A DNA stretch of 64,000 bases. Origin: a virus. The DNA lies in IMG/VR virus record IMGVR_UViG_3300013114_000447, positions 124,001 through 188,000 of that record; one strand, written 5' to 3'. The notes below the pieces were generated by a model, which ran no database searches, was not told the origin of the DNA, and saw only the letters and a program-made list of their open reading frames with translations. Position 1 is the stretch's first letter. Every line of letters starts with the position of its first letter. This document shows, in pieces, positions 1 to 47,377 of the stretch. The translations under genes were made by a program, and so were the position numbers.

Positions 1-1050
1 TATAGTGACCAGCAACAACGCGTTGCAACCTGGAGAACCTTTTTAAACGAAGGTTCTTTTCTGCAACGCTTGCGAAAAAAAAGCGCTCCCGGCCTGGAAG
101 ACATGTCGGATGCCGAACTTCGTGGAGTATTTGCGACCGACCCGGATCCAGCAAACCAGCGTCAAGCAGCATACCTCTATATTAGACGTGCAAGCAACAC
201 TGAAGAGCAACAAAGCCGCACAGAAGAATTAATGGACATTGCCAAGTCTAAAGATCCTACACCCACATCGCGTACTGGGACGACTGCCTTGGGTGAACCG
301 GTCCCCCCCATCCCAGATGAGCCCTCACGACTTAGCACACGCATGCCCACCACTACTCCGGCACCAGTCGAAGACGAAGAGATGGTCGTTTGGGCAAAAA
401 AAAGCGCACCTCCACTAAAAAAGGCTCTTGAAAGTGGGGGTTCCAAAGATGTAGCAGAGGCGCGCACTTGGATCGCACGCCGGACGGAGGAAGAAAAAAA
501 CGCTCTGATAAACGCTCTGGCAGATATCGGACACACTTTTGTAGAAGACGATTCCGCAGATGAGAGCCCTGGTTCAGAAGAGACAGATATACCGGAACCT
601 CTTCTTAATAGCGACGACCACACTTTAACTGTGATTCATTTTCTTGGATTGGATGACGCACCTTTGGATTCTATTCATTACCCAACAGACGAAGCCTGGA
701 TGAATGCATCGGAGAGGCAGAAGCGAATCTGGTATCGTTATTACGCGGATGTTATACAGGATCGCGGCCAGGATTCGGACGGTGAAGATCCTTTATATAG
801 ATCATTTCACAGCTTTTTCTTGAAGCCCGAGACGGATCTCTTTCTCCCAGAAGCGTTTCGCCAGTGGCTCGCTTGGGAAATTGAGAATCCTGAAAAAACA
901 CCTGAAGTAAAAGCTTGGTGCGGCGAAAAAGAATGCACCCCGGCCGACATTGAGAGCAAACGCGAGTCACTTAAAGAGCTTTATATATTGGAAGAATCTC
1001 AAATGAGACGGTGGCACCAATTAGCAGGAATTAACCCGAGAGTATTATGA
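1..1050 (+). CDS. Probable virion-interior protein, 5' end outside window
   Basis: The reading frame is open from the first base, so the start lies upstream; about 349 residues are visible. No enzyme family is recognised. The first visible residues include W-R-T-F-L-N-E-G, a Leu-x-Glu-Gly site like those near the N-termini of four other proteins in this window and like T4 gp21 prohead-protease sites. The middle is acidic and proline-rich, as in a low-complexity linker. The C-terminus has a helical region with W-C-G-E-K-E-C and ends near R-W-H-Q-L-A-G-I, similar to the K-R-L-A-G-I end of the scaffold at 8996. The stop overlaps the next ATG (ATGA). A core or portal-associated virion protein is inferred from position and the cleavage-like site. 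Confidence 0.7.
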   Translation, partial: YSDQQQRVATWRTFLNEGSFLQRLRKKSAPGLEDMSDAELRGVFATDPDPANQRQAAYLYIRRASNTEEQQSRTEELMDIAKSKDPTPTSRTGTTALGEPVPPIPDEPSRLSTRMPTTTPAPVEDEEMVVWAKKSAPPLKKALESGGSKDVAEARTWIARRTEEEKNALINALADIGHTFVEDDSADESPGSEETDIPEPLLNSDDHTLTVIHFLGLDDAPLDSIHYPTDEAWMNASERQKRIWYRYYADVIQDRGQDSDGEDPLYRSFHSFFLKPETDLFLPEAFRQWLAWEIENPEKTPEVKAWCGEKECTPADIESKRESLKELYILEESQMRRWHQLAGINPRVL

Positions 1051-24583: not shown

Positions 24584-27500
24584 ATGGCTGGCGGAGGAGG
24601 CGATTTTTCGGACATCACCGGCGGCCCGGCAACGGAAGACCAGAGCATGAGCGAGTGGGAAAGATGGCAACGCGACAACAGGAATGCGAGCGCAATAGAA
24701 AAAAAGCGCGCCTTCTTACGGATCGAGGGAAATCTGGACGACGATGAAGTCGATCAGGCGCTAGCTGCCGTCGATGCACACATTCGCGCTGCGACTCTTT
24801 ATTATGATGAGGTCGAGAAGTGTGTACGGCAAATCAAATTAAATGAAGAAAAAGCTTGTGAATCTTACCAAAAACTTAAAGTTATCTGGGATAAGAATTT
24901 TACCGATACTGATAATCCACGCGGCCATGATGAAGCCTGGACGTCCGAGGCTGGCGCCTTCAATATTACGCTGGAGGCCGCGGACTCTTCGGCGCCGTTC
25001 ACCCGCCATGGCGAAGAGGTGTCGGCGGCAAATAGATTAGCTATTTCTCTAAAAAATAGTTCTGTTGATAGCCAAATGGCGGCACAATTTTTTGGGGGTG
25101 TTTATTTTTATGCTCGTTCAATGGCTGAAAATTCTGCATTTTGTGCAGACTCTCATCGTTCTGGCACGCCGGGCAATATCGCGCGGGGAGAACGCCTTAA
25201 GTGGCACCATTACGTCACCGGCGAGAGCGACGCTGGTGAGCTTGGACAGAGCGAATATGATTCTGGCACGCTCACCCTCAAAACCGGCCAAGTGATGCCG
25301 AATGCTCTCAAAGAGGAGTATCAAAGAACCGATGTCACCAACGAACAGCGCAAAGGCATTAAAACTCTCATCCAGCACGCTGGAACCTTCCACGCACACG
25401 CGCATCAAGCTTTTTGGGCTCAACTGGGCGCCCAGGAGGTCGAACAAAGAGAGGGTTCGGCCTGGGAGCGCGCGGTACAGCTTTCTTATTACTTTACCTC
25501 GGGCGCCGGCGCGCGCGATCAGGTTGCCGCATTTGCCGATGATAGCTATGCCCAAGGACTCTCCCAGGCGCAGGCAACAGATCCCAGCGTCACAGTCCCG
25601 CGCGGCGCACGATCATGGAAGAATGGCACACTTGCCGAAATGGCTAGTCAGGCAAGGGCTGCCTTGCGGAGGCTCATCGCGGCCGATATTAATAGAGCAG
25701 CCAACGAAGAACTTCTTAACGATCTTGGGGGACTCCTGGGTCAGTTCTCTCTCTTCGCCAGGAACATAGCCGCGGGCTATGGGTGTTGGTCGGAGCAATC
25801 CCGGATCTTTGCCAATGCTCAGCAAGATTATAACGAGGCGATAGTAGCGCTAGCCGGCGGCGGTCAGGGGCCCCTTGCATATGCCGCGGCTCTGGTCCGC
25901 GGCGACGGATGGGACGGTCTTAATGATTCTCTGATCGACATGCTTGACGATAGCCATAGTGCCTCTACCTATGCTGCGATGGATCGCCAGCGAACTATTT
26001 TTAATGAGCAATGCTTTTTACTTTCTTATATTTCCGATATTGCTGATCACAAAAAACGTCGGGACAGCACTGCGCCGCGTTCTGGCTCCATAGCAGCTAG
26101 CTGCGGTACCGGCGCGACTCCCGGCAAGGGAGTGCCTTATTTAGGGGAAGCCGGCAACTCTACTTTATTAGTTGATGGAGACTCTTATGGGTTTCTTAAC
26201 AAGCTCACGCAGACTGGTGATCAAAAAGTTTTCTTTAATATGAAAAGTGATGTCCTTAATCACTTGCAGCCAATGATTCGGCTGTTTAAAGTAGCCTACG
26301 ACAGTGATAACGAAACCACAGAACAAGAGTTTATTTTTAAGTCTTGGGGCGCGCCAAATCTTCAAGAAGTGTTGAAAAGAAAAGAACAACGCGGCTTTGG
26401 AGTGGGAGTAAAAAGCTTTGATTTTTCGTATGAAGGAAATAATCCTTTTGCTGTTAAAAAGAGCATTAAAGCCACTTTAAAGATCTTTGCTAATAGTATG
26501 TCTGAATTATTTGATGTGCACAATGGGATTAGTTATAGTGATTTAGCTCTCAAGACCACACAACCTACTCAGAGCAACAATGATTGCGCGACTATTGCTG
26601 CTGGAGGTTTTGTCACCGCCATAGGGCAACATTCGGCGCTTGAAGAAGCCAATTTAGATAAATTAAACTTTAGGCTTAAGGCCGTTGTTGGCTGGGCGCG
26701 CCCCTCTGGTCAAGGTCCTTGGAGCACGATGAGCAGTCTCACGAGCGATCCAAATCGTAATAGTAACAACTTACGAGATGCCATTTATCAATCTTACACT
26801 ACTTTAAACTTAACGCCTACCGTTCATAATTTTGAATTTGATGATATGGGGCGTGTCATCTTTACTATTGAATATCTGGCATTTGTAGACGATTATTACG
26901 ATAGCCCGGCATTTAATATTTTTGCCGGCACTGACACAACCATCGAACAAATTATAAGAAATTTACAAATAGAGTTCTATAATCGCAATTGCAAATCCGA
27001 AGAAGCAAGCAACGTTAAAAAAACTCTCGCTGACAGGGCTGCAGCAGAAAAAAGCCAAGCGCTTACTTCTTTAATAGAAAACCTAAAAGGCAAAAAACGA
27101 ATTTATTATATAAAACTTCCGTGGTCCGAAGTGGCAGAGTTTAACTCGGCCGGCCCTTTCTACAATTGGAATGCGGGGGAGGGTGCTGGAGAAGCTTTTC
27201 AAATACAAAGCGATAGTGAAAATGATGCTAGCCTAGCGGCCGAAATGGCGACTGCCTTTGACTCTTATAATTTTGCAGATGCGGGAGTCGGCTCTGAGAG
27301 TGAAGAGGCGAATGTTTTTAAGGCATCCCTTCTTGTAGAGAATCCAGAAACAATAAACCTTTCCTTCTTCTATATAAGCGATTTGATCGATACGATTTTA
27401 GAATCACTCGAAAAGGAGCTTTCAACGTTGGGCGACCGTCTTTCGGATCGACTGTCAACGGAAGGCTCAGATATTACGCGTTGTCAAGTTACAATGGCAG

Positions 27501-28558
27501 TTGATAAATATACTCGGGCTTATAAGAATTTTAAAAAATTAAGAATTTTATTAGGCCCGGTGGAGTTTGTGAATCAAGGCGATCAAGGTACACGAGTCTT
27601 AGGAGGCGCGAGTGCGATGGTAAACTTCGGTGACATACCTATTTCAGTTCGGTATTTTCTGGAATATCTTGCGGACCAGATGTTGAAAAAAGAGAGAAGC
27701 ACGTATACTCTTACGAGTTTTCTTAATGACTTGTTTAACAAGCTCATAAGAGACTTCTTAAACGATGAAACTTGTTTTGATTGGAGTATTAAACAAAGAG
27801 TACGGGTTAATCAAGCAGTTATAACGAGTTATCCGCAACAAGCCGATGGGCTTGATGAAATCGCTGCTAGTATGAAAGCCGCGGGTAAAGCTCGGATCTC
27901 CTTATCGACCTTATCGATGCCCATTTTAAACATCTCCGGCCGCGGCCCAATCTCTTCGCCCGACGTTGCGGACGAAGTCAACTATTTTGTTTATTTTGCA
28001 GGACGTACTGCACCCGCAGAGCGCATGCAAGGAAACAAGCGAGATGATGAAAATGCCGGAATCTTTCACTATCAACTTGGCCGCGGCGAAGGACTCATTA
28101 AAAACATTAAACTCAGTAAAACTGATTCGCGTGGTTTGGCAGAGGTTAGATTCGAACAAGATGGCTATGACGGCTTAAAACAATTGCGTGTCGTGTACGA
28201 TACCGAAATCGATTCTTATTCTAATGTTAAAACCTATCCAGGGACTTACATATATGTGGATCCGCGCGGCTTTGCGCCCGATATGAGAGCGGGAGGAACT
28301 GCTACAGAATTTGGCTTGACAGACTTAGGTATTGGCGGTTATTATATGATAGTAAAATCTTCGCATACTTTTGCAGCAGGTCAAGCTGAATCTAAAATTT
28401 ATGCTAAGTGGGTCAATGCCATAGAAAACTCCGCAATTCAAGCTGAAAGAGCTACAGCTACAGGGAACCCGGATGCAGCCACAACAGGGCCGGCACAATG
28501 TCACAGCGCCTTAGCCAATCGAAATGACAATGCCGAGGAAGAGGTGGTGAATCCTTAA
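24584..28558 (+). CDS. Very large baseplate/tail structural protein
   Basis: 1324 residues, the longest gene of the tail cluster, starting 1 base after the gp53-like stop. The first 500 residues are acidic and helical (for example residues 55-120 and 350-430). Residues 540-700 contain a beta region with V-K-S-F-D-F-S-Y-E-G-N-N-P-F and K-A-T-L-K-I-F-A, as in baseplate proteins that pack on the tube. The last 350 are beta-rich with G-T-Y-I-Y-V-D-P-R-G-F and Y-Y-M-I-V-K-S-S-H, resembling hub proteins of contractile tails. The exact baseplate identity is not recognised. Confidence 0.6.
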   Translation: MAGGGGDFSDITGGPATEDQSMSEWERWQRDNRNASAIEKKRAFLRIEGNLDDDEVDQALAAVDAHIRAATLYYDEVEKCVRQIKLNEEKACESYQKLKVIWDKNFTDTDNPRGHDEAWTSEAGAFNITLEAADSSAPFTRHGEEVSAANRLAISLKNSSVDSQMAAQFFGGVYFYARSMAENSAFCADSHRSGTPGNIARGERLKWHHYVTGESDAGELGQSEYDSGTLTLKTGQVMPNALKEEYQRTDVTNEQRKGIKTLIQHAGTFHAHAHQAFWAQLGAQEVEQREGSAWERAVQLSYYFTSGAGARDQVAAFADDSYAQGLSQAQATDPSVTVPRGARSWKNGTLAEMASQARAALRRLIAADINRAANEELLNDLGGLLGQFSLFARNIAAGYGCWSEQSRIFANAQQDYNEAIVALAGGGQGPLAYAAALVRGDGWDGLNDSLIDMLDDSHSASTYAAMDRQRTIFNEQCFLLSYISDIADHKKRRDSTAPRSGSIAASCGTGATPGKGVPYLGEAGNSTLLVDGDSYGFLNKLTQTGDQKVFFNMKSDVLNHLQPMIRLFKVAYDSDNETTEQEFIFKSWGAPNLQEVLKRKEQRGFGVGVKSFDFSYEGNNPFAVKKSIKATLKIFANSMSELFDVHNGISYSDLALKTTQPTQSNNDCATIAAGGFVTAIGQHSALEEANLDKLNFRLKAVVGWARPSGQGPWSTMSSLTSDPNRNSNNLRDAIYQSYTTLNLTPTVHNFEFDDMGRVIFTIEYLAFVDDYYDSPAFNIFAGTDTTIEQIIRNLQIEFYNRNCKSEEASNVKKTLADRAAAEKSQALTSLIENLKGKKRIYYIKLPWSEVAEFNSAGPFYNWNAGEGAGEAFQIQSDSENDASLAAEMATAFDSYNFADAGVGSESEEANVFKASLLVENPETINLSFFYISDLIDTILESLEKELSTLGDRLSDRLSTEGSDITRCQVTMAVDKYTRAYKNFKKLRILLGPVEFVNQGDQGTRVLGGASAMVNFGDIPISVRYFLEYLADQMLKKERSTYTLTSFLNDLFNKLIRDFLNDETCFDWSIKQRVRVNQAVITSYPQQADGLDEIAASMKAAGKARISLSTLSMPILNISGRGPISSPDVADEVNYFVYFAGRTAPAERMQGNKRDDENAGIFHYQLGRGEGLIKNIKLSKTDSRGLAEVRFEQDGYDGLKQLRVVYDTEIDSYSNVKTYPGTYIYVDPRGFAPDMRAGGTATEFGLTDLGIGGYYMIVKSSHTFAAGQAESKIYAKWVNAIENSAIQAERATATGNPDAATTGPAQCHSALANRNDNAEEEVVNP

Positions 28559-28567
28559 GGAATAGAA

Positions 28568-29863
28568 ATGAGCAAATACGTTAAAAAAACCACCATTCCT
28601 TTGAAATCGCTGTTTTATAAGCGAACTAAATATTATAGAAAATCTATTACTGCTCGCACTGAGGGGGCTGTCTCACACAATAATTTAATAAACTATCATC
28701 TGGCAGAGCTTAATATGTATGGAAAAGTTGATCAACAATATGTTCCGATGATCGTAAGACAAAGCGCTCTCCAGAAATTTAATTCTAAAGTTTTAGTTAA
28801 TCCGGATGAAACGCATCAAGCAGTTGATTTTGTGGTCGATCTCTTTGAGCAGATGGCCCAACAATTTGAAAAATGTGCAATGATCGGAAAGATCAACCCC
28901 AACGATCCATTCCTTTCTAATTTAAAAGTTTATAAAGCCTATACCAATCCTACTATACGATATGACCAATATTTTGGATTAATGGCCAACACCTTAAAGA
29001 CACAGCTTAGAAAACGAGGTATTGTTATTTTAACAATGGATGATTTTATGTCAGCCCTTCTTCAAGTTCTCCCAGACGCAGCGCTGCAGGCACCATTCAC
29101 TCAAGTGGCTTGGACTAAAAGTAAATATTGTCCATCACGCGTTAGCGGCCTCGTTGTTGAAATTGCAGATTTAGGATATAACAACGATCAAGAGAAGATT
29201 GATCTTTTTTATAACAGCCTTAATTGGGACTTTTATGTAAAGACGTGTAATTCTTATGGTTTTATTGTAGATTCGTCGGCGCCTTGGCGCCTCTTAGCTG
29301 ACCTGGACTCCAAGATAATGATGGACGCTCAATCACGTGCCGGCCACGCCTCTGGTGTCACAGGAACGCTAGGGTCCATTTTTCGTAGTGTGCCAGTCGC
29401 CTATATAAGCCGTTTTGAAAAAGATCTATATAATCTTTTTCTGGTTGTGCGCTCCCCGCATACGACGACCCCAGCTATCTGTGCTTATAGTAATGAGCTT
29501 TCGCCTCTGGTAACTTACGCACCCTCCTATACGTTTGGAGAGTTTAATTCTCTTAAAAGTGCTGAATATTATATTAAAACATATTGTCAGATAAGGTTTT
29601 TGGAAGAGGAAAGTCATTTCACCCCAGCAGAACAACTACGGCTCATAGATGACTGTATTGGTGTGATGCGCACAGGGCAAATTAATGTAGCTATTAAAAA
29701 TTTTGAGTATGTTCTCAATAAACCATTTGACTATATTGGCTCAGTGAGTTATAATAATAAATATGCAAGAGCAAAAGATGAGTACGAGCGAAAACACGGC
29801 GGAGATTGGCGTGAGACCGAACGCGAGGTCCACCGGATTAAAGCCCGTAGAAATCTTAAATAA
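28568..29863 (+). CDS. Uncharacterised probable structural protein
   Basis: 431 residues with a clear AAGGAA ribosome site, last in the tail cluster. It is mixed alpha/beta, with features such as L-V-V-E-I-A-D-L-G-Y and L-L-A-D-L-D-S-K-I-M. The C-terminus is very basic and charged (K-H-G-G-D-W-R-E-T-E-R). There are no membrane segments. Its order after the baseplate protein suggests a virion or assembly role, but I do not recognise it. Confidence 0.55.
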   Translation: MSKYVKKTTIPLKSLFYKRTKYYRKSITARTEGAVSHNNLINYHLAELNMYGKVDQQYVPMIVRQSALQKFNSKVLVNPDETHQAVDFVVDLFEQMAQQFEKCAMIGKINPNDPFLSNLKVYKAYTNPTIRYDQYFGLMANTLKTQLRKRGIVILTMDDFMSALLQVLPDAALQAPFTQVAWTKSKYCPSRVSGLVVEIADLGYNNDQEKIDLFYNSLNWDFYVKTCNSYGFIVDSSAPWRLLADLDSKIMMDAQSRAGHASGVTGTLGSIFRSVPVAYISRFEKDLYNLFLVVRSPHTTTPAICAYSNELSPLVTYAPSYTFGEFNSLKSAEYYIKTYCQIRFLEEESHFTPAEQLRLIDDCIGVMRTGQINVAIKNFEYVLNKPFDYIGSVSYNNKYARAKDEYERKHGGDWRETEREVHRIKARRNLK

Positions 29864-29874
29864 ACGAGCAGACG

Positions 29875-31059
29875 GTGATATTTCAGACGTTAGATGATAA
29901 AAGTGAATGTGTAGGTGTTTATTGTGAGGGTAAGCTTTATTATGAAGATTTCCCCACCGAACTCACCCATACATGGAAGTATTCGGGTGGACTAGAGAAT
30001 AGAGATATAGAGTATGCTTCTTTATACTGCGCAGGTCTTTCCTTGGCTGAAGCATGCCCGGCCAAACATCTTGAAGAACTCAAGGCGGCCCAAAAAAGAT
30101 TCCGAGCTTATCTAAAATCTTTTGAATTGGCCAAGGTTAATATGCGCGACCATTGTATTTTTGATTTGGTACCCCAAGATTTTCTTAAAAAGTTTTGCGA
30201 GATTAAAAATAAAGTGACAGCTCATGTCATAGAGAACTATTCCAAACCCGAGTGCTATGATCATCTAAAGAATGTATCGGCACTCCTACACGATCTTAAG
30301 TATCGGCACCTTCATCTAACGAACGAGGGGTGTAAAAAGTTGCACTATTCTTCCTCAAATTCTATGCGAATTAAGAGGCTGCTAAGTGGTCCTACTCATG
30401 TTGATTACAATTTATTCGGAACAGTCACAGGACGCCTTACAACGCGAGCAAATTCGTTTCCTATACTGACCCTTCAAAAGGAATTTAGGAAGCTTGTAAA
30501 ACCCCATAACGACTGGCTATTGTCACTTGACTATAACGCTGCCGAGGTACGAACGTTCATTGCGCTAGCCGGCGAAGACCAGCCTCAAGAAGACGTGCAC
30601 GAATGGCACATTAAGAATTTAATCCGAGAGGAAATATCTCGGCAAGAAGCAAAGGTAAAGTTTTTTGCGTGGATATATAACAGCGATGCACCAGCCAATG
30701 AGTTTGAAAGCTATAAGAGAGAAGAGGTGCTCGACAAGTGGTATGACGAAGAATTTGTACACACTCCATTTAAAAGAAAAATAAAGGTTGACAAACGCAA
30801 AGCTTTGAATTATATTATACAGAGTACCACAGCAGATTTGGTATTAGATCGAGCGGTAGCAATCGATAAATACTTGGAAGATAAAAAATCTTTTATTGCC
30901 TTTGTTGTGCATGATGAAATTGTGATTGATTTAGCTAATGAAGACAGGCATTTAGTACCGGAGATAAAGAAAATGTTCTCGACGAACAAACTAGACCAGT
31001 TCTTAGTTAATTTAAAATGCGGTAAAGATTATGGCAGCATAGAGGAGTTAAAGTTATGA
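29875..31059 (+). CDS. polA: Compact family A DNA polymerase
   Basis: 394 residues from a GTG start. The C-terminal two thirds has all polymerase motifs: G-T-V-T-G-R-L-T-T (residues 182-190), motif A L-D-Y-N-A-A-E-V-R with Asp219, motif B R-Q-E-A-K-V-K-F-F-A-W-I-Y-N (256-269), and motif C V-H-D-E-I-V with His346/Asp347. The N-terminus is short and has neither a 5'-3' nor a recognisable 3'-5' exonuclease domain; the former function is encoded apart at 36526. Bacterial Pol I is more than twice as long. It overlaps the next gene by 4 bases. Confidence 0.9.
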   Translation: MIFQTLDDKSECVGVYCEGKLYYEDFPTELTHTWKYSGGLENRDIEYASLYCAGLSLAEACPAKHLEELKAAQKRFRAYLKSFELAKVNMRDHCIFDLVPQDFLKKFCEIKNKVTAHVIENYSKPECYDHLKNVSALLHDLKYRHLHLTNEGCKKLHYSSSNSMRIKRLLSGPTHVDYNLFGTVTGRLTTRANSFPILTLQKEFRKLVKPHNDWLLSLDYNAAEVRTFIALAGEDQPQEDVHEWHIKNLIREEISRQEAKVKFFAWIYNSDAPANEFESYKREEVLDKWYDEEFVHTPFKRKIKVDKRKALNYIIQSTTADLVLDRAVAIDKYLEDKKSFIAFVVHDEIVIDLANEDRHLVPEIKKMFSTNKLDQFLVNLKCGKDYGSIEELKL

Positions 31060-31907
31060 TTTCAATTATCGGTATCGGGAACGTCGGTTCTGCTATTGTA
31101 GAAAAGTTTGAAGATATTAGCAATTATGAAGTATATGCTTTAAACAATAAAGTTAAAAGAAATACTAAAAATAAATTTAAGCTAAAACATTTTGAAGACC
31201 CAGATCAATATGAGCAGAATGTACCCGATCTCACAGAGTTTTTTAAAAATGTTCGCGAACGAACACAAGTATTTATTACGGGAGCCTCTCTTAGCTCTAA
31301 TTATGGACTAGGCATCTTAGAACAAATTAGGCACACTCGAATAGACCTCTTTTATATTCAGCCCGATACGGAGTTGTTGACCGGCGCCCCCAAAACAAAT
31401 GAGAAGATTACTTTTGCAGTACTGCAAGAATATGCGCGCTCTGGGTTATTTAATTCGATCACGATTATTTCCAACGCCCTTCTAGAAAAGGTAATAGGAG
31501 AAATACCTATTAAGACCTATTATGATACCCTGAATAACACGATTTTCTCGATGGTCCATTACTTAAATTTCTTTGAGTTTACAGAGCCCGAGATTGGTGT
31601 AGTATCGACCCCGGCCGCCACAAGTCGCATTCGCGCCATAGCTGCGCTGGATGTAGAAAAACTTGAAGAAAAATGGTTTTTTGAGCTTGACGCCCCGCGA
31701 GAAGTGTGTTATTATATATGTATAAACGACAAAAGATTAGCGAGTGAGGGAGGCCTTCACAAAAAGCTGGTTGATTTGCTCAAGGAAAAACCAAAGAATG
31801 CTTTCAAAAAGATTTCATATGCCATTTATGAAACCGAGCACGATGATTTTGGGTTCTGCGTTGCCCACACAAACGTAGTACAAGAACAAAAAACACTTGA
31901 CTCTTAA
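31056..31907 (+). CDS. FtsZ/tubulin-like protein (putative)
   Basis: 283 residues. The start, I-S-I-I-G-I-G-N-V-G-S-A-I-V, is a Gly-rich nucleotide loop, then V-Y-A-L-N-N where FtsZ has its A-I-N-T-D segment. V-F-I-T-G-A-S-L-S-S-N-Y-G aligns with the FtsZ/tubulin GGGTGTG loop but lacks its glycines. A-V-L-Q-E-Y-A-R-S-G-L then I-T-I-I-S-N-A-L-L-E-K-V matches the helix and D-x-L-I-V-I-P-N-x-x-L-L region of FtsZ. It is shorter than FtsZ (about 380). An NAD-binding Rossmann protein is the main alternative. It is coupled to polA by a 4-base overlap. Confidence 0.5.
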   Translation: MISIIGIGNVGSAIVEKFEDISNYEVYALNNKVKRNTKNKFKLKHFEDPDQYEQNVPDLTEFFKNVRERTQVFITGASLSSNYGLGILEQIRHTRIDLFYIQPDTELLTGAPKTNEKITFAVLQEYARSGLFNSITIISNALLEKVIGEIPIKTYYDTLNNTIFSMVHYLNFFEFTEPEIGVVSTPAATSRIRAIAALDVEKLEEKWFFELDAPREVCYYICINDKRLASEGGLHKKLVDLLKEKPKNAFKKISYAIYETEHDDFGFCVAHTNVVQEQKTLDS

Positions 31908-31925
31908 AGTTGGGTGTGTTATACT
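31897..31925 (+). promoter_or_regulatory. Sigma70-type promoter for SSB gene
   Basis: TTGACT at 31897-31902 and TATACT at 31920-31925 are 17 bases apart. The -35 box lies inside the end of the previous gene. An AAAGGAG ribosome site follows. Confidence 0.8.
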
Positions 31926-31951: not shown

Positions 31952-32719
31952 ATGTCAATTGATATGGAGCTTATGCGCCGCAAGCTCGCAACTTTGCGCG
32001 GTGAAAACAAAGGTGATTCTACTTCTGTTTGGTTTAAACCAGACGAGGGCGACACCGACATTCGGATCATTCCAACTAACGACGGAGATCCACTGAAGGA
32101 AATGTTCTTTCATTATAACGTAGGAGACCACAGGGGCGGAATCTTGTGTCCTAAGCGTAATTTTAGTGAGGCATGTCCTATCTGCGAATTCGCTTCTTCG
32201 CTTTGGCGAGAAGGAAGCGAGAAAAACGACGAGGAGAGCAAAAAGCTTGCAAAGTCACTCTTTGTGCGCACCCGCTATTTCAGCCCCGTCGTTGTTCGTG
32301 GTCGAGAAGATGAAGGGATTAAGGTATACGGCTACGGTAAGACCGCATACGAACTCCTTCTCGGCTACATCCTTGACCCCGAGTACGGTGATGTTACGGA
32401 CGCGACCGAGGGTACTGATATTACTCTCACGTATACGAAGCCCACTAAGCCGGGAGCATACCCCCAGACGAGCCTGAAAATGCGTCGTAATACCTCAACT
32501 TTGCTTGAGGATACCGAGGCCATCCCCGCCCTCCTTGATGGCATGCCCGACTTTGACTCTCTCTTTGAGCGTCTTAGCCCCGAGCAGGTAGACGCTATTC
32601 TCGATGAACAACTTGCCGGAGACGGATCCGCTGAGTCGCGTTCACGCGAGACTGCCAAGTACAGCACAACCGAAGCTACTGACGTCGACCGTGCATTTAA
32701 TGAACTGGTAGCAGGCTAG
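31952..32719 (+). CDS. Single-stranded DNA-binding protein, gp32-like
   Basis: 255 residues. The zinc pattern H54-x11-C66-x8-C75-x2-C78 closely copies T4 gp32 (H-x12-C-x9-C-x2-C). Around it are V-W-F-K-P and L-F-V-R-T-R-Y-F-S-P, as in gp32 core domains. The C-terminus is acidic, as expected for partner binding. It has its own sigma70 promoter and a terminator, which suits an abundant, early-expressed protein. It coats ssDNA at the fork and in recombination with the UvsX-like protein. Confidence 0.88.
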   Translation: MSIDMELMRRKLATLRGENKGDSTSVWFKPDEGDTDIRIIPTNDGDPLKEMFFHYNVGDHRGGILCPKRNFSEACPICEFASSLWREGSEKNDEESKKLAKSLFVRTRYFSPVVVRGREDEGIKVYGYGKTAYELLLGYILDPEYGDVTDATEGTDITLTYTKPTKPGAYPQTSLKMRRNTSTLLEDTEAIPALLDGMPDFDSLFERLSPEQVDAILDEQLAGDGSAESRSRETAKYSTTEATDVDRAFNELVAG

Positions 32720-32761: not shown

Positions 32762-32879
32762 AATTAGTATCCAGAGTGGTCAAGGATATAAATAAAAAGA
32801 CCACATTTAACCCAAAAGTGCAATTGTTATGGCTATCGCACTTTCCATTAACAGGCCATTGGCCAAAGGAATATATAAA
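32762..32879 (+). other. Gap before ParB-like gene
   Basis: It holds a 6-bp inverted repeat (GTGGTC/GACCAC) around the octamer TATAAATA at 32787-32794, identical to the T4 late -10 box. The real start of the next gene is at 32880, with an AAAGGA site at 32865-32870. Confidence 0.35.
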
Positions 32880-33983
32880 ATGGACACAAACACAGCGAAT
32901 ACCGGCGCCAATACCGGTATCCTCGATGTCAACAATCTTAATGGTGTTGATAATCACCCTAATAACCCGCTCGTTCGCGTGGGCTTTAACGACCAAGGAA
33001 CTATCAATCTAGATGACCTAGAGAGAATCATTAAACTTCAGTTCAATGATGCGAAGTTCTCACACTTCGACTGGTTAGATTTAGATGAGATCGATCTCAA
33101 TTCCTCTAACTGGAAGAACATTGGAATCCGGGATGACTTCGACGAGACTACTCGTATTGAGAGTTTCCGAGTTTCTTTCCGCCGACATGGATATGACATG
33201 TCGGAATTCCCACCATGTATCGATACTGATGGTGATGTAATGGAAGGACGTACCCGCATTAAAGGAGCTATCCTGAACGGGTATCGCTACATGCCAGTTG
33301 CAGTCTACACTCGTAGTGTCAAGACAGAACGCAACACCGTCACTAACGGACTGCTTGCCAATCAGAAGAAGCCAGTCTTTATGGCCAGCTTCAACGATTA
33401 TGTTGGAGCGGGAGTCAACTTGATTGCCAAGGGACAGCTTAAAGCTACGTCTACGGCTGTTGATGACTGGCTCAATCATGAAGTCAAGATTGGCCAAGTT
33501 ATTGATAACGGTATCAATGGAATGGTCACTAAGATTCGCAATGCGATCTTGAACCGCGCCTCGACGCGCGCAGGACTTGTCTGGCGCGTAACTAAATCTG
33601 AGGCTGAGAAGTGGATCAAGACAAATCTTGGTTTGGCTAAGGCTGACTTTGTTCTGATCAACATGGCAGACAACGAGACATATGCGGAGCGCGCATGGCG
33701 ACAAATCCGAGATGCCCTCAAAAACGGCCGCGAGCCGGTGAACCTGATCTTCTACACCACAGACGACGACCCTAACGCTGCACGCGCTGGTCTGAAGAAG
33801 TCTATGGAATATGTAGAAAACTTGTACTGCGATTCGTGGGAAGTGGTTATGAGTCAGTTGCCCGAAGGCATCTCTTTGACAATTCCTCCGCACCGCCCCT
33901 TTGTTTTTAAGGGAGCGCTGCCGCAGCTTGTTCAGCGTCACAACATCAACAGCAGCAACTTGGTTTCGGTCAATAACTACTGA
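32880..33983 (+). CDS. ParB/sulfiredoxin-fold protein (putative)
   Basis: 367 residues. I chose ATG 32880 over the longer frame from 32829 because AAAGGA lies 9 bases upstream. Residues about 75-140 contain F-R-V-S-F-R-R-H-G-Y-D-M then D-G-D-V-M-E-G-R-T-R-I-K-G-A and M-P-V-A-V-Y. This is the order of the ParB/Srx nuclease-like domain (G-x-x-x-P then D-G-x-x-R then A-x-x-x-G-x-x-x-V-P-V). The C-terminal half is helical and then alpha/beta and unfamiliar. It lies between SSB and methyltransferase genes, suggesting a role on DNA. Confidence 0.5.
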   Translation: MDTNTANTGANTGILDVNNLNGVDNHPNNPLVRVGFNDQGTINLDDLERIIKLQFNDAKFSHFDWLDLDEIDLNSSNWKNIGIRDDFDETTRIESFRVSFRRHGYDMSEFPPCIDTDGDVMEGRTRIKGAILNGYRYMPVAVYTRSVKTERNTVTNGLLANQKKPVFMASFNDYVGAGVNLIAKGQLKATSTAVDDWLNHEVKIGQVIDNGINGMVTKIRNAILNRASTRAGLVWRVTKSEAEKWIKTNLGLAKADFVLINMADNETYAERAWRQIRDALKNGREPVNLIFYTTDDDPNAARAGLKKSMEYVENLYCDSWEVVMSQLPEGISLTIPPHRPFVFKGALPQLVQRHNINSSNLVSVNNY

Positions 33984-36525: not shown

Positions 36526-37506
36526 ATGAAGAGAGTATTGATTATTGATGCGTTAAATGCTTATTTGCGCGCATATATTGTAGACCCCAGCATTTCCACT
36601 AATGGAGAACCCATTGGGGGGATCAAGGGTTTTATTAAGATCTTGCAACGACATGTGCGCGAGACGAAACCCGATCAGATCGTGATCGTATGGGATGGTC
36701 CCAACGGCTCGAAGAAGCGCAAGAGCACTGACAAAAACTATAAGGCCGGCCGCAAGCCTATTCGCTTAAATCGGGCTTTCCACAATCTTACGGATGATGA
36801 AGAATTGCACAACAAGATGTGGCAGCAAAGTCGTGTGATTGAATACTTTAATCAAATGCCTATTGTACAGTTTATGATCCCTGAGATTGAAGCTGATGAT
36901 GTGATTGCTTATCTTACACATATGCATTATTACAAGGGATGGCAGAAGATTATTATTTCTAATGATCGTGACTTTATGCAGCTATGCGATGATGAAACGG
37001 TGTTGCTGCGACCCACCAAGAACGAGCTACTTAACAAGTCACGCATCATTGAACAGACCGGCATTCATCCGACTAACATGGCGTTGGCCCGAGCCATCGC
37101 TGGTGATGCCTCGGACAACCTCCCTGGTATCAAAGGCGCCGGATTGGCGACAGTAGGCAAAAGATTAAACTTTTTGAGCGATAGTAAATCTTACACCATT
37201 GATGAGGTGGTAGAATATTGCGGCAAAAGCAAAGCCAAGCTTAAGTTCTTCACCAACATCGCAGAGAACCAAAGTTTGATCGAACACAACTACAAGATGA
37301 TGCAACTGTATGCTCCGCAGATGTCAGTGCAGTCTAAACAACACGTTCAACACACTATTGAAAACTTTGAGTGCGAATTTAATAAAACTGAGATTATTGG
37401 TATGATGCGCGCCGATGGATTCGGCGAGTTAAATTGGGAAGTTCTTAAGGAAAACTTAAACAAGATCAATAAGGACTGTGTTGACGTCAACAAAGAAATA
37501 TTTTAA
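36526..37506 (+). CDS. 5'-3' exonuclease/flap endonuclease
   Basis: 326 residues from ATG 36526 with AGGAGGG upstream. V-L-I-I-D-A-L-N-A-Y near the start, V-W-D-G-P-N-G-S-K-K-R, E-I-E-A-D-D-V-I and I-I-S-N-D-R-D-F are the metal-binding motifs of the PolA-type 5'-nuclease/RNase H family. G-D-A-S-D-N-L-P-G-I-K-G is the helix-3-turn-helix DNA grip. It should remove RNA primers and complements the exonuclease-less PolA at 29875. It has its own sigma70 promoter. Confidence 0.9.
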   Translation: MKRVLIIDALNAYLRAYIVDPSISTNGEPIGGIKGFIKILQRHVRETKPDQIVIVWDGPNGSKKRKSTDKNYKAGRKPIRLNRAFHNLTDDEELHNKMWQQSRVIEYFNQMPIVQFMIPEIEADDVIAYLTHMHYYKGWQKIIISNDRDFMQLCDDETVLLRPTKNELLNKSRIIEQTGIHPTNMALARAIAGDASDNLPGIKGAGLATVGKRLNFLSDSKSYTIDEVVEYCGKSKAKLKFFTNIAENQSLIEHNYKMMQLYAPQMSVQSKQHVQHTIENFECEFNKTEIIGMMRADGFGELNWEVLKENLNKINKDCVDVNKEIF

Positions 37507-43048: not shown

Positions 43049-43947
43049 GCGATGGGCGGCACACACATCTAGCCGGTATTATACCGCTAGCTAACCTGAC
43101 TACTGATTTTGATCTCCCCACTCCGGAGTGCCTCACGCCTGTGGATCCTGGCTTCACCGCCATCCAAAAAGCAGTGTTTGAATGTGCTGTCGCAGGATGT
43201 CAGACCATATGGATTGTGGCCAACGACGATTTGGCACCTTTAGTAAAGAAAGTGGTTGGAGAGTGGACATATGATCCCGTTTATTACTCGCGCTCTCACA
43301 GCATCTTTCCCAGCGAGCATCGTAAAGAGATCCCTATATATTATGTGCCTATCCACCCCAAAGATCGCGACCGCCGCGATTCTTATGGATGGTCAGTGCT
43401 GCATGGCATTAATTCTGCGTGGAGGGTAGCTAATATTATTTCGCGGTGGGTCGTTCCCGATAAGTATTTTGTCACATTTCCAATGAGTGCGTATAATGTC
43501 TATGCCCTCAGAAATTTCCGGGCAAAAATTTCAGATTTTGAAAATAACTTTTTTTTAACTCACAATGGCAAAACTGTAAAGGATAATGAACACTTGGCGT
43601 TTACTATGTTTAGTGAAGACTTCATTCACTGCCGTCGCCATGTGAACAAAACTACGACAAGAGAATACTTAAATCCTGGGCCCGATGAAAAATACCCCCA
43701 AGAAAAACTACCACTCGCAAAAAGGTGGTCTGCCAGAGGGTTTGACTTCGCTACTATTTTTGAGAAGATTAATGAAAAGAATTCATACAAAATGGACATA
43801 GATTGGTATTATGACATTTCCAAATGGTCAGAATATCAAGCCTTTATGGGTTCAGAAAATTTCATACAAAAACCATCAAATAGCTTGACAAAGGCGCATA
43901 CACATGTTAAATTACCATATAGAGAGGGAGAAATAGATGACGATTAA
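43045..43947 (+). CDS. Nucleotidyltransferase-like protein (putative)
   Basis: 300 residues. The start, A-G-I-I-P-L-A-N-L, then P-E-C-L-T-P-V and T-A-I-Q-K-A-V-F-E-C-A-V-A-G-C, then I-W-I-V-A-N-D-D, follow the GT-A-fold sugar-nucleotide transferase order. The usual G-x-G-T-R-L signature is missing. The end is acidic. It overlaps its neighbours by 4 and 11 bases. Catalysis is uncertain; a repurposed fold is possible. Confidence 0.5.
   Translation: MSDGRHTHLAGIIPLANLTTDFDLPTPECLTPVDPGFTAIQKAVFECAVAGCQTIWIVANDDLAPLVKKVVGEWTYDPVYYSRSHSIFPSEHRKEIPIYYVPIHPKDRDRRDSYGWSVLHGINSAWRVANIISRWVVPDKYFVTFPMSAYNVYALRNFRAKISDFENNFFLTHNGKTVKDNEHLAFTMFSEDFIHCRRHVNKTTTREYLNPGPDEKYPQEKLPLAKRWSARGFDFATIFEKINEKNSYKMDIDWYYDISKWSEYQAFMGSENFIQKPSNSLTKAHTHVKLPYREGEIDDD
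43885..43913 (+). promoter_or_regulatory. Possible sigma70 promoter for dnaE
   Basis: TTGACA at 43885-43890 and TAAATT at 43908-43913 are 17 bases apart, inside the end of the preceding gene. The -10 matches only 4 of 6, so this is weak. Confidence 0.35.
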
Positions 43948-46900
43948 ATTCGTGGGGCTTCACGCCCACAGTGTGGCAGGATCTATCTTTGATGCAATCG
44001 GATACCCCGATGCTCATATGGATTTTGCTTTTGAGAACGGGAGCGATGCGTTAGCGCTCACGGACCATGGAAACATGAACGGACTAGCGGGACAGGTTTT
44101 GCATGCCAAGAAGATGCAGGCAGAGGGCAAAGACTTTAAACCGATTTTCGGCGTCGAGGCTTACTTCATTCCTTCCATTGAAGAATGGCGAGAAGAATAT
44201 GAAGCAGCCATGGCCGACAAGAAACGTGCTCGAAGCGCAAAGAAAGACGCAGCTTCGGGTGCAACAGTAGAAGACGAGACCGATAGCAAGAAGGTGCAAG
44301 GCTTATTGCGCCGACGTCGCCATCTCATTCTATTGGCTCAAAATCAAACCGGACTTAATAATCTCTTTAAGCTGGTTTCTGAAAGCTATAAGAGCGAGAA
44401 CTTTTATCGGTATCCGCGCATGGACTACGCACTATTAGAGAAGTATGGTGAAGGCGTTATTGCTGCATCGGCTTGTCTCGGTGGAGTGTATGCCGGAAAC
44501 TACTGGGAGAATGGTATTTATGATGAAGAGGGCAATCGCACCGGCGTAAACCGCGAAGGAGCGCTCGATGATATGCGCGAGACTACCCGTCGTATGCAAG
44601 CAGTCTTTGGAGATCGCTGGTATGGCGAGCTACAGTGGAACAACATTAAAGAACAGCATGAACTTAACCAGCTCATTATTCAGATTTCGGAAGAGTTTGA
44701 TATGAAGCTGATTTCCACAGCCGACAGCCACTACCCGAACCAGACCGCATGGAAGGATAGGGAGTTATACAAGCGCCTAGGCTGGCTTGGAAAAGGAACT
44801 CCATCCTGGGGTGAGGGTGCGGAATTCCCCGAGGGTGTAGAAGAGATTGGATACGAACTGTATCCCAAGAATGGCGATCAAATGTGGGAGAGCTATCAGA
44901 ACTATTGCAAGAGCAGCGGTTTTGAATATGATGATGCATTAGTGATGAACAGCATCACAGAAACCTACCACATCGCCCACGACCGCATTGAAAGCTTCTT
45001 TCCAGATACAACCGTGCGGCTTCCTGACTTTGTGGTGCCGGCTGGTACAACAGCCACCCAGGCTCTGGTCAACTATGCGCTTGAAGGCTTGCGTCTTAAG
45101 GGATTACAAAACAACAAAGAATATTTAGCGCGCCTGCGCCGCGAACTTGATGTCATTGATGACCGAGGCTTCTCCAAATATTTCTTGACGATGAAAGCTA
45201 TCGCTGATGAGGCCACCAAGCAGATGCTTGCTGGTCCTGGGCGAGGGTCAGCCGCTGGTTCGCTGGTTGCCTACGCACTCGGAATTACACAGGTCGATCC
45301 GATCAAGTATAACCTTCTGTTCTCGCGCTTTCTGCGTTCAGATGCAACCGACTATCCTGATATCGATTATGATGTATCGGACAGTATGGAATTGAAAGAG
45401 AAGTTAGTTGAGATGTGGGGTGAAGATTGTGTAGCCCCGATCTCCAACTGGAACACTTTGCAGTTGAGATCTCTTATCAAAGACATCTCAAAGCTTTATG
45501 GTATCCCCTTTACAGAGGTTAACAATGTCACTAGTGTGATGATGAGAGAGGCCACACCCGAGGCCAAGAAGAAGCATGGCATCAAAGCCGGCATCTATGC
45601 GCCCACCTGGGAAGAGGTGATGGAGTTTTCCGTCACGCTCCAAGCCTTTCTCCAGAAGTATCCGGAGGTCAAAGCTCGTGTTGAAGGTCTTGTGGGACAA
45701 GTACGCTCCTGCTCTCGACATGCAGGTGGTGTTGTCATCGCTGAAGATCTCGACCGTCACATGCCATTGATTAACTCTGGTGGTGTCCGTCAATCTCCCT
45801 GGAGTGAGGGGCAGAACGTGCGGCATCTAGAACCGATGGGATTCATTAAATTTGATTTGCTCGGACTCTCGACATTAAAGATGATGGAAGGGTGCATCGA
45901 ACATATCTTGCGGCGCCATCATGGTGTTGAGGAGCCGACTTTCGATGATATTTTAGACTATTATAATAAGACCATCCATCCCGATGTGATTGACTTTGAT
46001 GATCTTGAGGTATATAAGAATATCTTTCACCAAGGCAAGTGGGCAGGCGTCTTTCAGTTCACCGAGCAAGGAGCGCAGAGTTTCTGTACGAGAGTAAAGC
46101 CAACCAACATCATTGATGTTTCGGCTATTACTTCTATCTTTCGTCCAGGTCCGCTGTCGGCTGGTGTTGACGTTGATTACGTTGAAGCCAAGAACCACCC
46201 ACAGTATGTATCGTATCTCTCTGATGAGGCTCAAGAAATTACTGAAGAAACTTTTGGCTTTCTTATCTTTCAAGAACAGATTGCGTTGCTAGCTCATAAA
46301 TTAGGTGGACTTACTCTTGACGAAGGCAATATGCTGCGCAAGGTGCTGACCAAGAAGGGCACCGGCAAGAACAGTGTCAAGGCTAAGCTGCACACCAAGT
46401 TTATCAAGGGATGCGCGGCCAAGAAAATTCACCGAGACAAGGCTGAAGATCTCTGGAACAAGTTTGAGTATTTCTCTGGCTATGGTTTCAACAAGTCGCA
46501 CGCAGTTAGTTATAGCATTATCTCTTATCAGTGTGCGTGGCTGTGGAATTATTATCCTTCTGAGTGGATGGCTGCGTTCTTGGACAAAGAGCCTGAGACC
46601 AGAAAAGAAAAGGCAATCAACATCGCCAAGAAATATGGTTTTAAGATTGCACCACTGGATATCAACAAGTCCGGCACAGTATGGGAGATCAGTGACGATG
46701 GTAAGACTCTTATTCAGCCTCTGACTTCTATCAAGGGTCTAGGCATGGCCGCCATCGAACAGATTCTTGACCATCGACCCTTTAAGAACGCGGAAGATCT
46801 CTTGTTCCGAGAAGGTATATCATACAGCAAATTCAACAAGAAAGCTTTGGATGCGCTAGCACGAGGTGGAGCTTTAGATGATATTATCGATGATAGATTC

Positions 46901-47377
46901 ACAGGACGCAAGCATTTTTGGTCTGCATGTGTGGTAGAGCGCCCCAAGAACCTGAAGAAGCTGCTAGAGAACATCGAAACCTATCGACCCGAAGGCGATT
47001 TCAGCGAAGAGGAGATCATTCAGTTTAAAACAGAGCTTACGGGAGTGTTCCCCATTAACCTTGTGATTAAAGCGGAGACAGTCGAGAAGCTCCAAGAAAA
47101 GTTTATCCCACCAATCTCCGAGTTTGATACAGCTTTAGAAGTGTGTTGGTTTATTCCACGCAAAATCATTCCTAAGAAAACAAAAAATGGAAAACTTTAT
47201 TGGATTGTGGAAACAATTGATTCGAATAATGAACTCACAAAGATCCGGTGTTGGGGCGTAAAACCCGAGAAAGATACTATCTTTTTGAACAGACCGTATA
47301 TGGCCAAATTGCGCTATGATGAACAATGGGGATTTTCTACTTACGCAATTGGGAAGACTTTCAGATTGTTGGGCTAG
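43937..47377 (+). CDS. dnaE: DNA polymerase III alpha subunit, DnaE-type
   Basis: 1146 residues, like bacterial DnaE (about 1160). The N-terminal PHP domain keeps all nine metal ligands of active PHP exonucleases: H9, H11, D19, H44, E74, H129, C180, D263, H265. The palm has P-G-R-G-S-A-A-G-S-L and Y-P-D-I-D-Y-D with Asp475/Asp477. The fingers include Y-G-F-N-K-S-H-A-V-S-Y. The C-terminus carries an OB-like region. It is the likely main replicase with built-in proofreading. AGAGGGAG precedes the ATG. Confidence 0.92.
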   Translation: MTIKFVGLHAHSVAGSIFDAIGYPDAHMDFAFENGSDALALTDHGNMNGLAGQVLHAKKMQAEGKDFKPIFGVEAYFIPSIEEWREEYEAAMADKKRARSAKKDAASGATVEDETDSKKVQGLLRRRRHLILLAQNQTGLNNLFKLVSESYKSENFYRYPRMDYALLEKYGEGVIAASACLGGVYAGNYWENGIYDEEGNRTGVNREGALDDMRETTRRMQAVFGDRWYGELQWNNIKEQHELNQLIIQISEEFDMKLISTADSHYPNQTAWKDRELYKRLGWLGKGTPSWGEGAEFPEGVEEIGYELYPKNGDQMWESYQNYCKSSGFEYDDALVMNSITETYHIAHDRIESFFPDTTVRLPDFVVPAGTTATQALVNYALEGLRLKGLQNNKEYLARLRRELDVIDDRGFSKYFLTMKAIADEATKQMLAGPGRGSAAGSLVAYALGITQVDPIKYNLLFSRFLRSDATDYPDIDYDVSDSMELKEKLVEMWGEDCVAPISNWNTLQLRSLIKDISKLYGIPFTEVNNVTSVMMREATPEAKKKHGIKAGIYAPTWEEVMEFSVTLQAFLQKYPEVKARVEGLVGQVRSCSRHAGGVVIAEDLDRHMPLINSGGVRQSPWSEGQNVRHLEPMGFIKFDLLGLSTLKMMEGCIEHILRRHHGVEEPTFDDILDYYNKTIHPDVIDFDDLEVYKNIFHQGKWAGVFQFTEQGAQSFCTRVKPTNIIDVSAITSIFRPGPLSAGVDVDYVEAKNHPQYVSYLSDEAQEITEETFGFLIFQEQIALLAHKLGGLTLDEGNMLRKVLTKKGTGKNSVKAKLHTKFIKGCAAKKIHRDKAEDLWNKFEYFSGYGFNKSHAVSYSIISYQCAWLWNYYPSEWMAAFLDKEPETRKEKAINIAKKYGFKIAPLDINKSGTVWEISDDGKTLIQPLTSIKGLGMAAIEQILDHRPFKNAEDLLFREGISYSKFNKKALDALARGGALDDIIDDRFTGRKHFWSACVVERPKNLKKLLENIETYRPEGDFSEEEIIQFKTELTGVFPINLVIKAETVEKLQEKFIPPISEFDTALEVCWFIPRKIIPKKTKNGKLYWIVETIDSNNELTKIRCWGVKPEKDTIFLNRPYMAKLRYDEQWGFSTYAIGKTFRLLG

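What the first reader, a model, noticed from the sequence alone, without database searches (positions are those of the whole stretch)
31056..31907. FtsZ/tubulin-like protein with a worn GTP loop
The order of a Gly-rich start, A-L-N-N strand, V-F-I-T-G loop, helix and I-T-I-I-S-N-A-L-L segment fits FtsZ/TubZ, but the GGGTGTG signature is replaced by G-A-S-L-S-S-N-Y-G. It is coupled to polA, unlike known phage tubulins. It might be a non-GTPase filament or scaffold positioning replicating DNA.
Basis: inference. Interest (0 to 1): 0.65.

Follow-up and report, generated by a model that had tools for sequence, protein, structure and literature searches.

The report
Phage tubulin-fold protein, GTP loop lost
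A large, uncultivated, probably marine virus of bacteria carries, locked to a small DNA polymerase gene, a protein predicted to have the shape of FtsZ and tubulin but to have lost the parts that bind and split GTP, so an old filament protein has probably been reused as a structural part of the virus's replication machinery.

Summary
The 283-aa ORF (31056-31907) is intact, under strong purifying selection (dN/dS 0.06-0.10), and has at least 471 relatives in IMG/VR contigs but none detected in isolated phages or GTDB genomes. An AlphaFold model from 78 relatives (pLDDT 92.5) matches FtsZ/TubZ: all 50 listed PDB hits, best E 7e-14. In the viral library the first Rossmann enzyme comes ten orders of magnitude later. 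Sequence comparison alone does not reach significance.

The G-box is gone: 0 of 217 relatives have it. A rooted polA tree puts the window's GASLSSNYG type inside a grade with less worn loops. The T7 catalytic aspartates have no counterpart. Residues aligned with FtsZ's nucleoside side (T6 Asn, H7 aromatic and Asn) are near-invariant.

The gene overlaps a short, exonuclease-less polA by ATGA in 166 of about 196 loci and lies between polA and a gp32-like ssb, with conserved promoters before polA and before ssb. The same genome has a second FtsZ-like protein with intact GTP motifs, 42 kb upstream, but the two genes also occur apart.

Best reading: a GTPase-dead FtsZ/tubulin-fold accessory protein of the replisome. 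Fold well supported by prediction; replication role inferred.

The parts
29727..29755 (+). Sigma-70-like promoter (TTGACT-17-TATAAT) ahead of polA; proposed start of the polA-Z2 transcription unit
   Evidence: a similar promoter lies within 220 bases upstream of polA in 112 of 128 distinct relatives, 2.55 expected by shuffling
29875..31059 (+). Short family-A DNA polymerase (394 aa), polymerase domain only, motifs A, B and C kept
   Evidence: PF00476 58 bits, phrog_17; DYNAAEVR, RQEAKVKFFAWIYN and VHDEIVID conserved among relatives
31056..31907 (+). Z2: FtsZ/tubulin-fold protein without GTPase signature (283 aa), start codon overlapping the polA stop (ATGA)
31059..31097 (+). T1-like glycine loop of Z2, residues 2-14 ISIIGIGNVGSAI; G6 and G8 invariant
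   Evidence: 102 representatives
31278..31313 (+). T4 position of Z2, residues 75-86 TGASLSSNYGLG, where FtsZ has GGGTGTG
   Evidence: (profile alignment in register)
31473..31475 (+). T6 asparagine N140 of Z2 (98% conserved), aligned with the Asn of the FtsZ IPN(D/E) motif
31509..31577 (+). Predicted H7 core helix of Z2 (residues 152-174), with aromatic 156 (Y/F/H/W in 101 of 102) and N160 (100%)
31578..31628 (+). Region of Z2 that stands where FtsZ has T7 loop and helix H8 (residues 175-191); no helix predicted, no conserved Asp pair, R191 98%
31897..31925 (+). Sigma-70-like promoter (TTGACT-17-TATACT) straddling the 3' end of Z2, ahead of ssb
   Evidence: conserved in 105 of 135 distinct loci, 1.1 expected by shuffling
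31952..32719 (+). gp32-like single-stranded DNA binding protein (255 aa)
   Evidence: PF08804 59 bits, phrog_1192 E 7e-25; downstream of Z2 in 143 of 143 first-set loci with room

Best explanation
Z2 is a protein of the FtsZ/tubulin fold that has lost GTP phosphate binding and GTP hydrolysis. It is made together with a short family-A polymerase from one transcription unit and serves as a nucleotide-independent structural partner of that polymerase in the phage replisome. Well supported by prediction: the two-domain FtsZ/tubulin fold with core helix H7. Shown by sequence: loss of the G-box, no conserved T7 catalytic acids, family-wide polA-Z2-ssb order, ATGA overlap, flanking promoters. Inferred: that it binds at most a nucleoside or nucleotide through the conserved T6 and H7 residues without hydrolysing it; that it does not form GTP-driven filaments; that it contacts PolA, and possibly SSB or DNA.
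For: Fold: AF2 pLDDT 92.5, pTM 0.91 from 78 relatives. Foldseek against PDB: all 50 listed hits FtsZ/TubZ, E 7e-14, TMq 0.71; in BFVD, FtsZ-named proteins first and Rossmann enzymes ten orders later. Weak but in-register sequence support: hhalign of a divergent Z2 subfamily to FtsZ aligns T4 to T4, T6 to T6 and H7 to H7 (E 0.0015, 16.5% probability); the sub-threshold Pfam Tubulin segments in five records all fall on Z2 by coordinates. Loop wear: divergent members read GGGATSG, GGGGNTPG or GGAGHISG at T4; 0 of 217 ORFs keep the G-box; in a rooted polA tree the window's type is a clade (support 1.0) inside the less worn grade. Purifying selection: dN/dS 0.06-0.10. Replication link: polA upstream 160/160, ssb downstream 143/143, same order in the divergent subfamily, ATGA overlap 166 of about 196 and promoter ahead of polA 112/128, separate ssb promoter 105/135.
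Against: No biochemical data. Sequence similarity to FtsZ is not significant on its own. A sister lineage has a related short polA without Z2, so the polymerase does not need it in general. Co-transcription with polA does not prove physical contact. The retained T6 and H7 residues mean nucleotide binding cannot be excluded.
Confidence: 0.55

Rival explanations
1. Z2 is a cytomotive filament like PhuZ or TubZ that positions replicating phage DNA, with GTP (or another nucleotide) held by an unusual loop.
For: FtsZ/TubZ fold; near-invariant T1, T6 and H7 residues; phage tubulins PhuZ/TubZ are known to centre or segregate DNA (PMC4244570, PMC3678025).
Against: No G-box in any of 217 relatives; no T7 acidic pair and no H8 helix where the catalytic and longitudinal contact lies. 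No PhuZ family match for Z2. No centromere-like iterons near it.
Confidence: 0.15
2. Z2 is the non-hydrolysing partner or cap of the second, canonical FtsZ-like protein Z1 of the same phage, as in heteropolymers with one silent site.
For: Z1 with intact GGGTGS and T7 Asp pair is in the same genome (invariant columns); all five long contigs of the window's clade in which the site could be seen have Z1.
Against: Z2 occurs without detectable Z1 in contigs of 155, 159 and 106 kb, and Z1 occurs without Z2 in a 236-kb contig and relatives. The genes are 42 kb apart.
Confidence: 0.15
3. Z2 is a decoy that binds host FtsZ and blocks host division during infection.
For: FtsZ fold with a damaged bottom face could cap filaments (inference).
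Against: About 11% identity to FtsZ in structural alignments; locked to polA and ssb rather than to host-takeover genes.
Confidence: 0.08
4. Z2 is an ordinary NAD(P)-binding Rossmann protein.
For: GxGxxG start; weak Pfam hits to dehydrogenase-type domains in single members (TrkA_N 8.6e-5, Shikimate_DH 0.006) and weak PDB profile hits to malate dehydrogenase (E 0.13).
Against: The confident model matches FtsZ/TubZ at E 7e-14 over both domains, and Rossmann enzymes only at about 1e-3 in the viral library; a 23-residue core helix and C-terminal sheet follow as in FtsZ.
Confidence: 0.05

Closest known systems
FtsZ (bacterial cell division GTPase)
   Same: Predicted fold, order of strands and helices, Gly-rich T1, T6 Asn, H7 aromatic and Asn
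   Different: No GGGTGTG, shortened region where T3 lies, no T7 Asp pair or H8, about 11% identity, phage gene in a replication operon
PhuZ / TubZ phage and plasmid tubulins (PMC3678025, PMC4244570)
   Same: FtsZ/tubulin fold encoded by large phages; possible link to phage DNA
   Different: PhuZ/TubZ keep a working GTPase site and form protofilaments; Z2 lacks the signature, has no PHROG PhuZ match, and is coupled to polA
FtsZl1 family (Makarova and Koonin 2010, PMC2875224)
   Same: Highly diverged member of the superfamily for which conventional filament formation is doubtful
   Different: FtsZl1 is cellular, keeps its nucleotide loops T1-T4 and lacks recognisable T6-H7 and C-terminal parts; Z2 is the reverse: T4 worn, T6, H7 and C-terminal domain present
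Z1, the second FtsZ-like protein of the same phage (375 aa, outside the window)
   Same: Same superfamily and same genome
   Different: Z1 keeps GGGTGS and T7 Asp pair and reaches Pfam Tubulin's cut-off; Z1 and Z2 do not align significantly

Membership tests
FtsZ/tubulin superfamily (fold) | GTPase-type N-terminal domain, core helix H7 and C-terminal activation domain | tested here: met
   Predicted model pLDDT 92.5; all 50 listed PDB hits FtsZ/TubZ, E 7e-14
FtsZ/tubulin superfamily (fold) | Statistically significant sequence or profile similarity | tested here: inconclusive
   Pfam Tubulin E 0.03 in 4 of 24 divergent members; hhalign E 0.0015, 16.5% probability, in register; no PDB FtsZ hit
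FtsZ / TubZ / PhuZ GTPases | T4 G-box signature GGGTG(T/S)G | tested here: not met
   0 of 217 Z2 ORFs (148 distinct); window has GASLSSNYG
FtsZ / TubZ / PhuZ GTPases | Catalytic acidic residues in T7/H8 | tested here: not met
   No conserved Asp pair; R191 98%; no helix predicted in H8's place. Z1 of the same phage does keep D262 and D265
FtsZ / TubZ / PhuZ GTPases | Residues on the nucleoside side: T1 glycines, T6 Asn, H7 aromatic and Asn | tested here: met
   G6 and G8 100%, N140 98%, aromatic 156 in 101 of 102, N160 100%; position equivalence
FtsZ / TubZ / PhuZ GTPases | GTP binding, hydrolysis and polymerisation | not testable with these tools
   needs purified protein
PhuZ (phrog_4733) | Match to the PHROG family profile | tested here: not met
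   no match for the window protein, 21 clade-A or 24 divergent members; Z1 matches weakly, E 0.005
NAD(P)-binding Rossmann enzymes | Best structural matches among dehydrogenases or epimerases | tested here: not met
   none among the 50 listed PDB hits; first in BFVD at E 1.5e-3

The most novel reading that the evidence does not exclude
A tubulin-superfamily protein that is a GTP-independent accessory subunit of a DNA polymerase (tether, clamp or assembly factor for an exonuclease-less family-A polymerase) in a widespread lineage of uncultivated phages, many of which also carry a separate, GTPase-competent FtsZ-like protein.
Probability: 0.35. Interest if true: 0.8.

Novelty: new variant of a known kind. 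Interest (0 to 1): 0.63.

Why it matters
Members of the FtsZ/tubulin superfamily are generally understood as GTP-driven polymers; Makarova and Koonin (2010) wrote that all characterised ones form filaments. A family of at least 471 phage loci that keeps the fold under strong selection while losing the G-box, with a gradient of intermediate loops, allows a direct test of what the fold does without GTP hydrolysis. Its fixed, translation-coupled place behind a DNA polymerase points to replication rather than division or segregation. The family has no match in Pfam, PHROGs, isolated phages or GTDB genomes as searched here, so it is unannotated.

Tried and rejected
Single-sequence AlphaFold run: pLDDT 42, not used. 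Sequence-only searches of Pfam, PHROGs, PDB, INPHARED phages and GTDB contigs gave no usable homologue. An obligate Z1-Z2 pair was considered after Z1 was found and dropped because each occurs without the other. Z2 as a recent duplicate of Z1 was tested by hhalign and not supported (E 0.0046, 7.6% probability). A polA-Z2 fusion was looked for and none found in 217 ORFs. TubZ-style centromere iterons were looked for near Z1 and Z2: none. A promoter-like match in the 3' part of polA (78 of 142) was set aside because it may reflect coding constraint.

Full report
Where and what. The window is bases 124001-188000 of a 203-kb linear virus record from IMG/VR. It contains phage genes such as a tail sheath, UvsX, DnaB, ribonucleotide reductase, endolysin, a DNA polymerase III alpha-type polymerase and a head maturation protease. 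The finding is the 283-aa ORF at 31056-31907 on the + strand, called Z2 here. Its ATG shares four bases (ATGA) with the stop of a 394-aa family-A DNA polymerase gene.

It is a real, widespread gene. tblastn-confirmed scans of IMG/VR gave 43 relatives from the single sequence and 471 from an alignment. Further scans with distant members extended the family to roughly 35-40% identity. No relative was found in 50,697 phage records or in GTDB species genomes. dN/dS is 0.06-0.10 in seven pairs. A marine origin is a guess from the kind of contigs matched; no sample data were read.

Fold. A single-sequence AlphaFold run failed (pLDDT 42). With 78 diverse relatives (alignment A2) the model reached pLDDT 92.5 and pTM 0.91. 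Foldseek against the PDB gave FtsZ or TubZ in all 50 listed rows, E 7e-14 to 1e-11, TMq mostly 0.66-0.73, with two rows at 0.43. Against viral models the two top hits are named FtsZ or cell division proteins (E 4e-13 and 9e-10). Only six hits are below 1e-3, and NAD-type epimerases start at 1.5e-3. Predicted elements run S1-H1-S2 ... S4-H4-S5-H5-S6-H6-H7 (residues 152-174), then a reduced C-terminal domain of strands and one main helix. No helix stands in the place of H8 or H9 (compared with FtsZ topology from general knowledge).

Sequence evidence is weak but consistent. Pfam, PHROGs and PDB profile searches give nothing significant for Z2. Profile-profile comparison of a divergent Z2 subfamily with 31 bacterial FtsZ sequences gives E 0.0015 and only 16.5% probability, yet it lines up T4 with T4, T6 with T6 and H7 with H7. 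In five records (two of them, G126 and G127, look nearly identical here), the sub-threshold Pfam Tubulin segments not due to Z1 all fall inside the Z2 gene (coordinates). Membership in the superfamily therefore rests on the predicted fold, with sequence as minor support.

The worn GTP loop. At the T4 position the window has GASLSSNYG. In 102 representatives position 76 is Gly (99%) and position 85 Leu (100%), but no ORF of 217 (148 distinct) has the G-box, even in a loose form. Divergent members are closer to canonical: GGGATSG (L415), GGGGNTPG (L390), GGAGHISG (L398). A polA tree rooted on a Z2-less sister lineage makes the window's type a clade (support 1.0) nested within the grade carrying these less worn loops, L415 branching near the base. 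Deep nodes are modestly supported, so the direction (progressive wear) is likely, not proven. The T7 catalytic acids of FtsZ have no counterpart; the aligned stretch has an Arg at 191 in 98%. By contrast, residues that align with the nucleoside side of FtsZ are kept: T1 G6 and G8 (100%), T6 N140 (98%), an aromatic at 156 in H7 (101 of 102) and N160 (100%). That these contact the base in FtsZ is general knowledge, not tested here. The simplest reading is loss of phosphate binding and hydrolysis, with residual nucleoside or nucleotide binding possible.

Genome context. In the first set of loci polA is upstream in 160 of 160 and the gp32-like ssb downstream in 143 of 143 with room; in one of them the polA match lies 2.6 kb away. 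The same order holds in the divergent subfamily, with occasional insertions. The distance from polA stop to Z2 start is -4 (ATGA) in 166 of about 196 loci. A sigma-70-like promoter lies upstream of polA in 112 of 128 distinct loci (2.55 expected), and another straddles the 3' end of Z2 ahead of ssb in 105 of 135 (1.1 expected). In the window these are 29727-29755 and 31897-31925. This suggests a two-gene polA-Z2 transcription unit with ssb separately started; read-through is not excluded. The polymerase keeps motifs A, B and C but, at 394 aa, has no room for the usual exonuclease domains; a separate 5'-exonuclease-like gene is at 36526-37506.

A second FtsZ-like protein. A Pfam Tubulin search of the own record found a 375-aa protein (Z1) 42 kb upstream of Z2, outside the window, over the family cut-off. 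It has GVGGGGGK, AGGGGGTGS and SFDTKDLE. Its T4 glycines and both T7 aspartates (D262, D265) are invariant in 35 relatives. Its profile finds FtsZ, TubZ and CetZ-like structures in the PDB (best E 2.5e-9), and it has 77 loci in IMG/VR. Z1 is found in each of the five long contigs of the window's clade that reach its site. But Z2 occurs without detectable Z1 in contigs of 155, 159 and 106 kb, and Z1 occurs without Z2 in a 236-kb contig and relatives, whose polA is followed by a different gene of about 200 aa. The two proteins are thus not an obligate pair, and hhalign does not support a recent duplication. All these records are linear and may be fragments.

Mechanism. The best-supported explanation is a pseudo-GTPase: an FtsZ/tubulin fold reused as a nucleotide-independent part of the replisome, produced with the short PolA. 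Fold: about 0.93 likely. Loss of GTP hydrolysis: about 0.8. Partnership with PolA or replication: about 0.6, inferred from context only. Filament formation cannot be judged.

Compared with what is known. PhuZ and TubZ are phage and plasmid members with a working GTPase site that position or segregate DNA (PMC3678025, PMC4244570); Z2 fails the G-box and T7 tests, so it is not filed with them. FtsZl1 (PMC2875224) is a diverged cellular family lacking recognisable T6-H7; Z2 shows the opposite pattern. Jumbo-phage surveys describe tubulin/FtsZ homologues tied to nucleus formation or segregation (PMC7824862). The paper searches made here surfaced none tied to a DNA polymerase gene; the library holds open-licence papers only, so earlier description elsewhere is possible.

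Noticed in passing
G000:C1:111914-113041 (L173:1318-2445, outside the window): A second FtsZ-like protein (375 aa) with intact T1, T4 (GGGGGTGS) and T7 Asp pair; 77 relatives in IMG/VR, none in isolated phages. It lies downstream of an SbcC/Rad50-like ATPase C-terminus and next to a protein with a DGHHRW motif.
   Followed up: partly
window 31897-31925: Conserved sigma-70-like promoter ahead of ssb overlaps the last codons of Z2; its -35 box (TTGACT) encodes part of the conserved C-terminal TLDS tail of the window's clade.
   Followed up: yes
window, 8 sites (29727, 30788, 31897, 34785, 37514, 48719, 53023, 55841): TTGACN-16..18-TATANT occurs 8 times, all on the + strand, 0.38 expected: probably host-type promoters of the phage.
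   Followed up: partly
window 43937-47377: A full-length DNA polymerase III alpha-type polymerase (1146 aa) beside the short polA in the same phage; division of labour unknown.
   Followed up: no
L263-L267 (sister lineage): Related phages have the short polA followed by a gene of about 200 aa (looks HD-domain-like by eye) in place of Z2, and keep Z1.
   Followed up: partly
window 32829-33983: A 384-aa gene of unknown function (looks ParB-like by eye) and the following DNA methyltransferase are present in only some relatives between ssb and uvsX: a variable slot.
   Followed up: no
window 28568-29863 and 24584-28558: Two conserved genes of unknown function always near polA; the 1324-aa gene may be a structural protein.
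   Followed up: no
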